64,000 nucleotides of DNA from Methanoregula sp. (lineage in GTDB: Archaea > Halobacteriota > Methanomicrobia > Methanomicrobiales > Methanospirillaceae), in assembly GCA_028679075.1 (NCBI GenBank), contig JAJRCF010000018.1, positions 1 to 64,000 of the forward strand, given 5' to 3'. A program made the translations under genes and the position numbers. This document shows, one piece after another, positions 36,689 to 46,748 of this stretch (its first letter is position 1; each line of letters begins with the position of its first letter). The notes under the pieces are model-generated. The model ran no database searches. It was not told the DNA's origin and saw nothing but the letters and a program-made list of their open reading frames with translations.

Positions 36689-38521
36689 TTATGCCGGCCC
36701 GGCAACACTGCGCTGATCGAAGAATTTCCGCAGCCATAGTTCTGCACATACGATCCTCCAGATCTCCGGTGAATACTCCGATTGTCCCTCGAGGAACGCG
36801 AGATAATTCTGGAGTACCGCATCCGCGTCCCAGTACGGCCGGGCCCGGAAGGCGTCCGATGAGAGCAGGTCCAGCACGGACGGGCGCAGCTCCTCCCGCA
36901 TCCAGATTTCTTCGGGGGTTACAAACCCCATCTTGTCCCCGCGGCAGCGGATGGACTCGGGCACGATCCCCCTGATCGCGTTCCGGAGCGCGATCTTGGT
37001 GACACCGCCCCGGATTTTCTGGCTGAGAGGGAGGGAAGCACCATATTCAACGAACCGGTAATCGAGGAACGGGACTCTTGACTCGATCGAGAACGCCATC
37101 GCATTCCGGTCCTCGTAATGGAGGAGCGAGGGCAGGTTTGTGGACACCAGTTCGCGGTACAATACGCTGTCCAGGGTCCCGTTGTACCGGAGAATCTCTT
37201 CCCCGGAACACTTCAGGAGGTTCCTGCGCTTTTTTCGTTCGCGTAGCTGCCGGGCTGCGGAACGGAAGAACCCCCCGTGATGCACCAGGCTGCCGGTCAT
37301 TTCCCGGAGGGCGGTCCACAAGCGGAACGAACGGAGGAGCGTGCTGATGTAACTGCCCTGGTACGCGAGATACCCGGCAAGGAGTTCGTCTGCCCCCTGC
37401 CCGTCCAGCACCACCTTCACGTGCTCCTGCGCAAGGCGCATGACACAGAACTGGGCATAGATCGAGAGCGACCCGAACGGCTCGTCCTGTATCCAGACCA
37501 GCCGGTCAATGTCCTCCCAGAGTTTTTCCGGCGTGGGCTCGACCCGGTGGGCGTCGACCCCGGTTGCGGCAACGATCTCATCGATATACCGGCTCTCATC
37601 GAACCGCTTGTCGGTAAAGACCGCCGAGAAGGTCTTCTGCCGGGCCCCGACACTCGCGGGGGCCTCGTCCCGGATAAGGTCGTTGATGAGCACCGTGAGC
37701 GTTGACGAATCGATGCCCCCCGAGAGGCAGGTCCCCACCGCGACATCGCTCCGGAGGTGGATACGGGTTGCATCGCGGAGGACCGCGAGGAGCCGGGATG
37801 CAGCCTCATCGTCCCCGGTACCAGAACGGACCGCAGGACTGACCGTCACATCCCAGTACCGGAACGGCGGCTGTGGGCCGGCAGCGGTCACGACCATCGC
37901 ATGGGCGGGTTCAAGCTGGAAGATCCCGTCAAACATCGTCCGGCCGGAATGGTCGAGCACGCCCCATGCGAGGAACGTCCCGAGCGTCCTGTCGTCCGGG
38001 CACGTCCCCACATCCGGGTGGGCGAGCAGGGCCTTGATCTCTGAGGCGAACAGGAACGAGCTTCCTGCCTGCGTGTAATAGAACGGTTTGATACCCAGGC
38101 GGTCCCGTGCACAGAAGAGCCGCTGCCGCCGGTCGTCCCAGAGGGCGAAGGACCACATGCCGTTGAACCGGCTCAGGCACCCGGTATCCCACTCCTCGTA
38201 CGCGTGGAGGATCACCTCGGTATCGGAACGGGAGTGGAACTGGTGCCCTGCCCTGATCAGTTCCTCACGGAGCTCGACATAATTGTAGATCTCGCCGTTG
38301 AAGACCAGCCAGAGCGTGCCGTCCTCGCTCGTCATCGGCTGGAGGCCTTCATCGGTCAGGTCGATGATGGCAAGCCGGCGGTGGACGAGGCCGGTGCTCC
38401 CGCAGGTCCGGGTGCCCTCGCCATCGGGCCCGCGGTGGGTGAGCCGCCCGGACATCGCGGCAAGGAGATCCGGATCCGGTGCCCTGCCGTCAAGACAGTA
38501 CTGCCCTGCGATCCCGCACAT
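36689..38521 (-). CDS. asnB: Glutamine-hydrolysing asparagine synthetase
   Basis: A 610-aa AsnB. The class II glutaminase domain starts with the nucleophile Cys2 (MCGIAGQYC) and shows LTHRGPDGEGT, RLAIIDLTDEGLQPM and VFNGEIYNYVELREEL. The synthase domain has the PP-loop SGGIDSSTLTVL (about 265-275), followed by FDESRYIDEIVAATGVDAH, VVLDGQGADELLAGYLAYQ and AFSIESRVPFLDYRFVEYGASLP. It may make free asparagine or amidate a sugar or cell-envelope compound, since it lies next to manC. A hairpin array lies just upstream. Confidence 0.95.
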   Translation of the reverse strand: MCGIAGQYCLDGRAPDPDLLAAMSGRLTHRGPDGEGTRTCGSTGLVHRRLAIIDLTDEGLQPMTSEDGTLWLVFNGEIYNYVELREELIRAGHQFHSRSDTEVILHAYEEWDTGCLSRFNGMWSFALWDDRRQRLFCARDRLGIKPFYYTQAGSSFLFASEIKALLAHPDVGTCPDDRTLGTFLAWGVLDHSGRTMFDGIFQLEPAHAMVVTAAGPQPPFRYWDVTVSPAVRSGTGDDEAASRLLAVLRDATRIHLRSDVAVGTCLSGGIDSSTLTVLINDLIRDEAPASVGARQKTFSAVFTDKRFDESRYIDEIVAATGVDAHRVEPTPEKLWEDIDRLVWIQDEPFGSLSIYAQFCVMRLAQEHVKVVLDGQGADELLAGYLAYQGSYISTLLRSFRLWTALREMTGSLVHHGGFFRSAARQLRERKKRRNLLKCSGEEILRYNGTLDSVLYRELVSTNLPSLLHYEDRNAMAFSIESRVPFLDYRFVEYGASLPLSQKIRGGVTKIALRNAIRGIVPESIRCRGDKMGFVTPEEIWMREELRPSVLDLLSSDAFRARPYWDADAVLQNYLAFLEGQSEYSPEIWRIVCAELWLRKFFDQRSVAGPA

Positions 38522-38558
38522 TATGGTAAAGGTGGGTACCGGGGGTTAATAGTCCTGA

Positions 38559-38882
38559 GGGTCATAAGACCCGAAGGAGGAGAAGAACGCATCAGCGTTC
38601 TTCGACTGAATCCTGAGGGTCATCAGGGTCGAAGGCCGTTTTCAACGGCCTTCTCCATGTCGAGGTCTGCGACCTCTCCAATCCCAAAGGAGGAGAATCG
38701 AACAAGTCATCAGAATGCCAAGTGGTCTTCAGACCCGAGGCAGGAGAAGAACTCAATGGGTTCTTCGACTTGTGAGATGAGAAGAACGCCAGTTCTTCGA
38801 ACGAACGCATCAGCCTTCTTCGAGTCAGTGCATTCGAAGAATGCTGATGCATTCTTCTCGTCCTCCTGGCTCTACAAGCCAG
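38559..38882. repeat. Array of nine consecutive DNA/RNA hairpins
   Basis: Fills the 439-bp divergent gap between asnB and the GNAT gene. Hairpins (arm, loop, arm): GGGTC/GACCC 38559-38572; GAAGAACGC/GCGTTCTTC 38582-38603; GAAGGCCGTT/AACGGCCTTC 38631-38653; GAGGTC/GACCTC 38662-38676; GGTC/GACC 38724-38735; GAAGAAC/GTTCTTC 38746-38766; GAAGAAC/GTTCTTC 38781-38798; GAAGAATGC/GCATTCTTC 38836-38857; CTGGCT/AGCCAG 38866-38882. Stems differ but stay paired, and loops are short. A purine leader such as GGAGGAGAA precedes several. No gene is present. Confidence 0.8.
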
Positions 38883-38960
38883 TCGGAGCGGTAAAAACCG
38901 CATGCTGAAATATTATTGCGTGTAAGGTCTGTCAGGTATGAAGATCACCGGGAGATTACG

Positions 38961-39386
38961 ATGACGACCGAGACCCGCGAACTGAAGCCGGAGGAATTCG
39001 GTCTTGCCGAAAAGCTCTGGGTAGAGTACCGGGGCCAGAAAGCGGATAAGGAACATGAACGGATATTCGGCGTCTTCGATGATGGCACCCTTGCGGCAAC
39101 GGCCCGGTGTACCCGTCACCCGGACGGCCTGGAGATGGACTGCGTCTTTGCGTCTGAAAAGTACCGGGGGAAAGGGTATGCGAAGATGGCGGTAGGTCTG
39201 CTCCTGCAGGTATGCGGATGGGAGCAGATCTTCATTCACTCAACGCTGGTCCTGATCCCGTTTTACAAGAGAATGGGGTTCGTGCCGATTCCCGAGGATA
39301 AACTTCCCCAGACCATCCGGGAACGGTTCCTCTTCTGTTTCGGGGAGATGCAGGGGTGTAATGTCTGCCCGATGACAAGGGTTTGA
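38961..39386 (+). CDS. GNAT-family N-acetyltransferase
   Basis: A 141-aa GNAT protein. ERIFGVFDDGTLAATARCTRHPDGLEMDCVFASEKYRGKGYAKMAVGLLLQVCG contains strand 4 and the acetyl-CoA loop RGKGYA, and IPFYKRMGFVPIPEDKLP is the C-terminal motif. ERFLFCFGEMQGCNVCPMTRV adds a Cys pair near the end, seen in some methanogen GNATs. The start at 38961 has CGGGAG upstream. The frame extends to 38916 without similarity. It is divergent from asnB across the hairpin array. Confidence 0.85.
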   Translation: MTTETRELKPEEFGLAEKLWVEYRGQKADKEHERIFGVFDDGTLAATARCTRHPDGLEMDCVFASEKYRGKGYAKMAVGLLLQVCGWEQIFIHSTLVLIPFYKRMGFVPIPEDKLPQTIRERFLFCFGEMQGCNVCPMTRV

Positions 39387-43087: not shown

Positions 43088-43587
43088 TTGTGTTTCCTCC
43101 ATTCTGTTGTTTTTTCCTGGGTGTCCTCGGGCGCCCTTGGACATACAGCATTGGCTGAGAGGATATAACGGGTAATTGTGGGGGTATCAATCCGAAGCGA
43201 TAACGAGTCTGGAATTAAAATTCAGGCAATCCGGCGCGGATTGGCATTGATCGGGGCTGGAAATAAAACAAAATCACTTGGAGAAATGATACGGGTCTGA
43301 CGCTCTCGGGGGCTTTCGCCCCCGCCGCGTGGGCACCCCCCGATTAGGATGTCACCACATTACCTGTTAACAAAAGTGCAGAGTTTTTCCTGACGAGCAA
43401 TTCCGAAGAATTGTAAGCGCCCCCGAATCGAAGAACGCGAATCGTTCCTCTCCTGCTTCAGGTCTTACGACCCTCAGCACCCCCACGGGGGTGTCGAATC
43501 TGAAAGGTTCTTCGATTCAAGACTGGCGCGAGGGGGGGCAATCCTATCAGATGAACAACTCTATCCCGTGTGAAAAAAAGGAGAGGA
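43088..43587. other. Gene-free stretch: promoter and hairpin array 2
   Basis: 500 bp without a gene. The left part holds the promoter of the 42584 gene (TATA-like CGTTATATCC on the minus strand near 43160-43170). The right part is the second hairpin array (43307-43518), listed separately. Confidence 0.6.
43307..43518. repeat. Hairpin array 2, related to the 38559 array in opposite orientation
   Basis: Inverted repeats: CGGGGGC/GCCCCCG 43307-43324; CAATTC/GAATTG 43398-43413; GAACG/CGTTC 43433-43447; GGTC/GACC 43461-43472; CACCCCC/GGGGGTG 43478-43493; GAATC/GATTC 43496-43518. The segment 43461-43477 is the reverse complement of 38555-38571 with one mismatch (CTGAGGGTCATAAGACC form). The next part, a purine run then the GAACG hairpin, also corresponds. 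The two arrays are therefore copies of one element family. Confidence 0.75.
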
Positions 43588-46633: not shown

Positions 46634-46748
46634 ACCCTGCCCAAAATCTGCGAGCAGATCAACCAGACCTTGCATGAAAATTTTCAATCAAACCTTGCTC
46701 AAAAAATTTCAGGCAGACCTTGGTTGCAAAAAGTTAAACAGATCTGTC
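46634..46748. repeat. 25-bp tandem repeats, block 1
   Basis: After a partial unit at 46634-46657, three exact-length 25-bp units start with ACCTTG at 46667, 46692 and 46717 and end ..CAA or ..CAG. Unit 1 has the palindrome GAAAATTTTC at its centre. Unit 3 (46717-46741) plus its flank GCAAAAAGTTAAACAGATCT recurs at the end of block 2. Confidence 0.75.

What the first reader, a model, noticed from the sequence alone, without database searches (positions are those of the whole stretch)
38559..38882. Nine consecutive hairpins with covarying stems
Seen: the hairpins listed in the feature occupy most of a 325-bp divergent region. Stems such as GAAGAACGC/GCGTTCTTC, GAAGGCCGTT/AACGGCCTTC and GAAGAATGC/GCATTCTTC differ at several positions, yet both arms changed together. 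That is the mark of selection on pairing or of cassette-like insertion. No coding capacity. It could be a structured RNA, a family of palindromic (REP-like) sequences, or a protein-binding array insulating asnB from the GNAT gene.
Basis: seen in the sequence. Interest (0 to 1): 0.78.

Follow-up and report, generated by a model that had tools for sequence, protein, structure and literature searches.

The report
Dispersed double-hairpin repeats in methanogens
The row of hairpins is one cluster of a genome-wide family of short paired-hairpin elements found in methane-producing archaea, built around an unusual double mismatch, whose pairing is kept while the letters change and whose maker and use are unknown.

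Summary
The hairpins are real: the 361-nt region folds far better than shuffles (z -9.5). They are not unique to this locus. The array holds five units (some degenerate or truncated) of a dispersed ~54-nt element: hairpin 1 (nine Watson-Crick pairs interrupted by a tandem G·A/G·A mismatch), one base, GA, hairpin 2 (GAAGAA..TTCTTC), GA. The own genome has at least 139 matches; 140 of the 150 best aligned are intergenic, on either strand. In a letter-blind census, 144 of 169 2x2 internal loops in hairpins of the fetched sources are GA/GA or its mirror TC/TC. The family is abundant in 7 of 39 Methanoregula-genus genomes; the same plan with other stem letters occurs in 30 of 199 genomes of the order, up to 83 copies. 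Stems covary, also between aligned sites of related species. At asnB-GNAT, four relatives have 2, 1, 1 and 0 units, so a locus-specific role is unlikely. It works like REP repeats but lacks their end tag, and no Y1 transposase was found in the seven high-copy genomes. Likeliest: REP-like hairpins recognised as a folded single strand by an unidentified protein.

The parts
38553..38606 (+). Unit 1, complete: hairpin 1 38553-38578 (TCCT-GA-GGGTC ATAA GACCC-GA-AGGA), N, GA, hairpin 2 38582-38603, GA, N'
   Evidence: R1 79.3 bits (it is one of the 19 sequences R1 was built from); folds as drawn as RNA and as DNA
38628..38681 (-). Unit 2, degenerate hairpin 1; hairpin 2 = 38631-38653 (GAAGGCCGTT/AACGGCCTTC)
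   Evidence: R1 31.2 bits; stem
38716..38769 (+). Unit 3, degenerate hairpin 1; hairpin 2 = 38746-38766
   Evidence: R1 47.3 bits; stem
38770..38801 (+). Unit 4, truncated; hairpin 2 = 38781-38798
   Evidence: R1 21.4 bits, E 0.0037
38803..38823 (+). Degenerate hairpin-2 copy (95% like 38585-38605); can pair instead with unit 5
   Evidence: Repeat D7 and inverted repeat I2; long hairpin in the fold
38833..38887 (-). Unit 5, complete: hairpin 2 = 38836-38857, hairpin 1 = 38861-38887; sits where G034 has its only unit in this gap
   Evidence: R1 60.7 bits; GA/GA hairpin; flank match to G034
38522..38552 (.). Block next to the asnB start that is conserved in relatives, outside the array (probable asnB promoter, by eye)
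   Evidence: Side-by-side sequences of five genomes; promoter role inferred
38888..38960 (.). Less conserved block next to the GNAT start, outside the array (probable GNAT promoter, by eye)
   Evidence: Side-by-side sequences of five genomes; promoter role inferred
43427..43479 (-). Isolated unit of the same family elsewhere in the window
   Evidence: R1 48.2 bits

Best explanation
The feature is a cluster of five units of a dispersed, REP-like palindromic element family of Methanomicrobiales. Shown by the calls: a unit is two hairpins in fixed geometry, with tandem G·A/G·A mismatches inside hairpin 1 and at the foot of hairpin 2; units are mostly intergenic, on both strands; close neighbours join head-to-tail with a one-base gap or tail-to-tail with a six-base overlap; stems change on both sides together while the G·A pairs stay. 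Inferred: what is selected is one strand folded as single-stranded nucleic acid, rather more likely ssDNA (or a stand-alone RNA) than an mRNA element, because strand is random relative to genes; an unidentified protein recognises the tandem-G·A hairpins and copied, or still converts, units between sites. At asnB-GNAT the array is one such deposit between two divergent promoters, not a dedicated regulator of either gene.
For: Dispersal: 78 pieces by DNA similarity, 139 R1 matches, 140 of 150 intergenic. Tandem G·A: 144 of 169 2x2 loops are GA/GA or mirror TC/TC; in shuffles 18 loops with 2 TC/TC, GA/GA not among the eight types printed; hairpin-2 feet GA/GA or mirror in 188 of 228 own and 131 of 153 in relatives. 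Covariation: 32 of 42; Methanoculleus inner pairs 83, 85, 71 and 87 of 95 against shuffle means 39, 42, 31 and 60. Strand: hairpin-2 mismatches G·T 14, A·C 2. Geometry: gap of one base in 19 of 21 same-strand neighbours, overlap of six in 12 of 16 tail-to-tail. Sites: 20 of 30 best G034 loci lie beside relatives of proteins that flank own units, against 3 places in a 100-kb control; 54 pairs changed on both sides and still Watson-Crick at aligned sites. No strand bias to genes or along the G034 chromosome.
Against: No protein candidate: no gene family recurs beside units (largest cluster 4 of 243 proteins). No expression, binding or mobility data. Hairpin-1 mismatches give G·T 26 to A·C 11 in own loci but 10 to 13 in relatives, against strand selection. 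No replication-strand bias, which lagging-strand ssDNA transposition might leave. Stems differ where flanks are 95% alike (L015), so conversion between copies may explain part of the 'covariation'. In one search 21 cells are broken or shifted. One bacterial chance-type hit (L067) scores 29.9 bits with R1.
Confidence: 0.5

Rival explanations
1. RNA element: units are transcribed, on their own or in untranslated regions, and the folded G·A strand binds a protein, stabilises or ends transcripts.
For: Strong RNA fold; tandem G·A and G·T over A·C in hairpin 2 suit RNA; bacterial REPs are thought by their authors to be partly RNA elements (PMC3733652, abstract and section 15).
Against: Random strand relative to tandem genes (44 to 34; single units 8 to 12); T-runs follow only 2 of 95 units and precede 21 of 119, so not intrinsic terminators; no Rfam match; array here lies between, not in, the probable leaders.
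Confidence: 0.25
2. No function: old palindromic repeats kept paired by template switching between arms and by gene conversion between copies.
For: Template switching can create and maintain hairpins (PMC8794818, listing and abstract start only); stems change faster than some flanks; tandem arrays of near-identical units in G041 and G076.
Against: Arm-to-arm correction should erase the G·A mismatch, which is kept in most 2x2 loops and in two genera with different stems; hairpin-2 mismatches favour G·T over A·C. Conversion alone does not explain the letters chosen.
Confidence: 0.17
3. Ordinary non-autonomous mobile element (REP/REPIN moved by a RAYT, or a MITE moved by another transposase), now partly relic.
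For: Copy number, palindromes, dimers, patchy distribution; a relative without units in the asnB-GNAT gap (G025).
Against: No Y1 transposase in any of the seven high-copy genus genomes, although it is found in 5 of the 39; none over cut-off in 14 genomes outside the genus; no GTAG tag in the flank profile. Other transposase families were not tested; target duplications were not tested beyond looking at one locus.
Confidence: 0.12
4. Locus-specific insulator or regulator between asnB and the GNAT gene.
For: The array separates two divergent genes; four of the five genomes compared have at least one unit in this gap.
Against: Unit number is 5, 2, 1, 1 and 0; the same elements lie in 78 other intergenic regions of the loci examined.
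Confidence: 0.03

Closest known systems
GTAG- and CGTC-tagged REP elements (PMC3733652: abstract, sections 5, 14, 15 read) and REPINs (PMC3116915: listing and abstract start only)
   Same: Short dispersed extragenic palindromes, complementary stem changes between copies, dimers and clusters, patchy among species; CGTC REPs also lack a dedicated transposase according to that paper
   Different: No GTAG or CGTC tag; two-hairpin unit with tandem G·A; [quoted passage not shown] archaeal; no Y1 transposase in the high-copy genus genomes
Archaeal REPs reported by RepRanger (PMC12306157, passages only)
   Same: Intergenic palindromes in archaea
   Different: That survey's table lists six archaea, none of them Methanomicrobiales, and is based on single hairpins; the unit and its mismatch are not described in the passages seen
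Kink-turn and other tandem-G·A RNA modules (recalled)
   Same: Tandem 5'-GA-3'/3'-AG-5' inside a helix
   Different: Symmetric 2x2 loop without the three-base bulge of a kink-turn
MITEs (recalled; review PMC10969869 seen in listing only)
   Same: Short, non-coding, many copies
   Different: No terminal inverted repeats framing a body; the whole unit is two hairpins; target duplication not shown

Membership tests
REP elements (GTAG/CGTC) | Short palindromic repeats, many copies, mostly intergenic | tested here: met
   139 matches; 140 of the 150 best intergenic
REP elements (GTAG/CGTC) | GTAG or CGTC motif at one end | tested here: not met
   Base profile of 25 nt on each side of units shows neither motif; hairpin-2 feet are GA/GA
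REP elements (GTAG kind) | RAYT (Y1 tyrosine transposase, PF01797) in the genome | tested here: not met
   0 matches in the seven high-copy genomes, one of them a single contig, 99% complete; found in 5 of 39 genus genomes and 5 of 14 controls; 0 of 14 over cut-off outside the genus, one sub-cut-off match
REP elements | Dimers head-head or tail-tail, head-tail rare | tested here: not met
   Tail-to-tail 16, head-to-head 5, but same-strand neighbours 21 among the 42 close pairs
MITE | Target-site duplication and matching transposase | tested here: inconclusive
   No duplication seen by eye at asnB-GNAT; only Y1 transposase and reverse transcriptase searched
Known RNA family | Match to an Rfam model | tested here: not met
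   0 at gathering score in the window; best below-threshold match in the region 22.2 bits, E 0.16
Kink-turn | Three-base bulge next to tandem G·A | tested here: not met
   Loops are symmetric 2x2
Intrinsic terminator | Hairpin followed by a T-run | tested here: not met
   T-run of 5 or more within 25 nt after 2 of 95 units
mRNA leader or tail element | Consistent strand relative to the gene | tested here: not met
   44 same, 34 opposite in tandem regions; single units 8 and 12
Single-strand hairpin recognised by a protein | Binding of folded ssDNA or RNA by a host protein | not testable with these tools
   No binding or expression data held

The most novel reading that the evidence does not exclude
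A previously undescribed class of strand-specific tandem-G·A double-hairpin elements, kept by selection at many intergenic sites across an archaeal order and read as folded single-stranded DNA or RNA by a dedicated protein that is not a Y1 transposase; units are rewritten in place while their fold is preserved.
Probability: 0.35. Interest if true: 0.82.

Novelty: new variant of a known kind. Interest (0 to 1): 0.62.

Why it matters
REP-like palindromes are best known from bacteria, where the best-studied kind is tied to Y1 transposases. Here an archaeal order carries an abundant family with a different hallmark, without that transposase in the high-copy genomes searched, and with stems that differ at aligned sites while pairing and the G·A mismatch persist. 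It offers a clean test of what keeps dispersed hairpins paired: selection on a fold, conversion between copies, or template switching between arms. Of these, arm-to-arm template switching should not preserve the mismatch.

Tried and rejected
Rfam on the window and region: nothing at gathering score. Y1 transposase and reverse transcriptase as movers: no match in the seven high-copy genus genomes. A recurrent neighbour gene: 243 predicted proteins gave no cluster above four. Orientation along the G034 chromosome: no two-arc split better than chance (p 0.87). Viral contigs: 2 pattern hits, 18 bits each with R1, taken as chance and not followed. The three bacterial hits were taken as chance because 0, 0 and 1 of their two free pairs match and no GA/GA hairpin 1 could be placed, although one (Bauldia) scores 29.9 bits with R1. 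A second covariance model for the Methanoculleus form was not built because alignment A3 mis-set hairpin 2; a pattern search replaced it. A convergent-region excess (22 of 74 regions; 17% of window intergenic bases) was dropped because a Fisher test against window regions of 60 bp or more gave p 0.34. Kink-turn, leader, terminator and locus-specific readings: see membership test and rivals.

Dropped rows and choices: R1 was built from 19 units chosen for a 22-nt hairpin 2 and good pairing, so leans towards the structure; searches do not share that choice. Alignment A2 holds the best 150 of 176 matches, A4 the best 150 of 197. Of 55 flank-matched comparisons, 18 with at least 140 aligned flank bases (15 own units) went into and 37 were left out (short flanks, shifted places, paralogous flanking genes). 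The census can count one hairpin twice under two loop lengths, and used a block shuffle of single bases. Gene calls are from my own coding-potential script, not a standard gene finder.

Full report
1. The observation. The + strand of 38540-38900 folds with z -9.5 and the - strand with z -8.1 against dinucleotide shuffles, and its 361-nt bin is the richest in perfect hairpins of the window. It lies between asnB (36689-38521, -) and a GNAT gene (to 39386, +).

2. A dispersed family. Searching the own genome (2.50 Mb, 40 contigs) with the region gave 78 matches. Aligned copies show one unit: hairpin 1 of nine Watson-Crick pairs with a tandem GA/GA mismatch after two, three or four outer pairs and a loop that is often ATCA; one base N; GA; hairpin 2 GAAGAA..TTCTTC with variable inner pairs; GA; N'. 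A covariance model R1 from 19 units finds 139 matches in the own genome at E<=0.01, 150 of 1860 candidates being scored, and 176 in 74 fetched sources. In the finding they are 38553-38606 (+), 38628-38681 (-), 38716-38769 (+), 38770-38801 (+, truncated) and 38833-38887 (-); another is at 43427-43479 (-).

3. The tandem G·A mismatch. I counted each hairpin with at least three outer and five inner Watson-Crick pairs around a 2x2 mismatch in the 74 sources, both strands, without regard to its letters: 72 are GA/GA and 72 the mirror TC/TC, of 169. Block shuffles gave 18 such hairpins, 2 of them TC/TC, GA/GA not among the eight types printed. The sources were chosen for holding units; the census itself is letter-blind. 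In 100-kb stretches not chosen for units, G034 (high copy) gave 6 of 11, G076 3 of 10, G018 1 of 7, and G037, G011, G041, G048 and G021 none of 13, 5, 4, 4 and 10; the window gave 2 of 5 (some places counted twice). Hairpins of the form GAAG..CTTC are flanked GA and GA (or mirror) in 188 of 228 own and 131 of 153 relative cases. N and N' are Watson-Crick in 50 of 94 against 24 expected.

4. Pairing is maintained. On A1, 57 cells are changed on both sides against 14.7 in shuffles, but A1 was chosen for pairing. A cleaner test: a pattern that leaves two hairpin-2 pairs free was run over genome contigs (one genome for each of 84,980 species). It gave 42 matches in 38 loci: 32 pair at both free positions, 8 at one, 2 at none. 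The 39 matches in the 35 loci titled Methanoregula or Methanomicrobiales split 32, 7, 0; the three bacterial ones 0, 1, 2. For Methanoculleus-type elements the inner hairpin-1 pairs, left free by the pattern, are Watson-Crick in 83, 85, 71 and 87 of 95 distinct strings taken from the listed places, against shuffle means of 39, 42, 31 and 60.

5. Which strand. Single mismatches in hairpin 2 on the GA strand are G·T 14 and A·C 2, own and relatives together (p 0.004). Hairpin 1 gives 26 to 11 in own loci but 10 to 13 in relatives, which does not agree. With the G·A pairs this suggests, but does not prove, that one strand folded as single-stranded nucleic acid is what selection sees.

6. Place in the genome. 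Of the 150 best matches 140 are intergenic by my own simple gene calls, in 79 regions; 74 have both neighbours called: 41 tandem, 22 convergent, 11 divergent. Against window regions of 60 bp or more neither the convergent excess (p 0.34) nor the divergent deficit (p 0.39) is significant. Strand is not biased relative to tandem genes (44 to 34; single units 8 to 12), nor, for 119 matches in the one-contig genome G034, by any two-arc split of the chromosome (p 0.87). Among neighbours within 15 nt, same-strand units are one base apart in 19 of 21 cases and tail-to-tail units overlap by six in 12 of 16. A T-run of five or more lies within 25 nt before 21 of 119 units and after 2 of 95.

7. The asnB-GNAT gap in relatives. 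asnB was found beside GNAT in G034, G031, G014 and G025 as well as here, in 5 of 17 GNAT loci examined, some of them cut by contig ends. The gap between the protein matches is 436 bases here, 293 (G014), 286 (G031), 176 (G034) and 118 (G025), with 5, 2, 1, 1 and 0 R1 matches. Blocks next to each gene are similar in the five and the units lie between them; that these are promoters is my inference. The last unit here lies where G034 has its only one; stems differ and still pair.

8. Sites are old. Of the 30 best G034 loci, several in the same array and some in paralogous gene clusters, 20 lie near relatives of proteins that flank own units; 100 kb of other G034 sequence gave 3 such places. In 18 comparisons (15 own units) with at least 140 aligned flank bases, out of 55 flank matches, 276 pairs are unchanged, 54 changed on both sides and still Watson-Crick, 9 differ through a G·U, and 21 are broken or shifted. 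Some stems differ where the flank is 95% identical (L015 against G031), so stems may be swapped by conversion or template switching rather than mutated step by step. Template switching between arms (PMC8794818, listing and abstract start only) should however erase the G·A mismatch.

9. Spread. By shared contig lengths G031 is Methanoregula sp. STB_131, G014 is PD_MW2_B and G019 is PtaB.Bin085. Beyond the genus the same plan appears with other stems: in the G076 loci, 10 of 11 GA/GA hairpins 1 are followed by GA-hairpin-GA and one by GA-hairpin-GG. A pattern for that form occurs in 30 of 199 genomes of the order, 2 of 38 genera, with up to 83 copies; the reversed control pattern gave 0. G076 has exactly the length given for Methanoculleus marisnigri in PMC2686161, where 3 transposable elements are listed. 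G041 holds about ten head-to-tail copies of a 41-nt form and G076 seven of a 52-nt form.

10. What it is like. It works like REP elements: dispersed, extragenic, palindromic, often paired or clustered, patchy. I do not file it as one, because defining features were tested and not met: the GTAG/CGTC tag and, for the GTAG kind, a Y1 transposase, not found in the seven high-copy genomes while the same search finds it in 5 of 39 of the genus and in 5 of 14 controls, and not over cut-off in 14 genomes outside the genus. Reverse transcriptase is not found in the seven either. Other transposase families were not searched. [quoted passage not shown]

11. Literature. I read passages of PMC12306157, the abstract and sections 5, 14 and 15 of PMC3733652, and passages of PMC3035220 and PMC2686161. 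PMC8794818, PMC3116915 and PMC10969869 were seen only in search listings. Searches combining Methanoregula, Methanoculleus, Methanomicrobiales or archaea with palindromic, inverted repeats, intergenic, miniature inverted-repeat, noncoding RNA or tandem G-A listed no paper that from its title and abstract start describes these elements; only the best-ranked papers are listed and most subscription papers are not held.

12. Verdict. Best reading: a new REP-like variant with a tandem-G·A double hairpin, acting as a folded single strand through an unidentified protein. The weakest link is that protein, for which there is no candidate.

Noticed in passing
window 43427-43479: An isolated unit of the same family (-) in another intergenic region of the window, 48.2 bits with R1.
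   Followed up: partly
L271 about 2080-2520 (G041) and L275 about 1720-2080 (G076): Head-to-tail arrays of near-identical 41-nt (about ten) and 52-nt (seven) forms, as if recently expanded.
   Followed up: partly
5' side of units in the own genome: A T-run of at least five bases lies within 25 nt before 21 of 119 units but after only 2 of 95; possibly an insertion preference or nearby gene ends.
   Followed up: partly
39 genomes of the genus: The seven high-copy genomes have no match for Y1 transposase or reverse transcriptase, which occur in 5 and 8 of the 32 low-copy ones; numbers are small.
   Followed up: no
window 46659-46732: A 25-nt tandem repeat of 2.9 copies, unrelated by eye to the units.
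   Followed up: no
GNAT gene, window 38916-39386: Every one of 39 genomes of the genus has at least one relative of this protein at E<=1e-15, up to six.
   Followed up: no
L067 2043-2095: A Bauldia (bacterial) place scores 29.9 bits with R1 although neither free pair matches; taken as chance.
   Followed up: no
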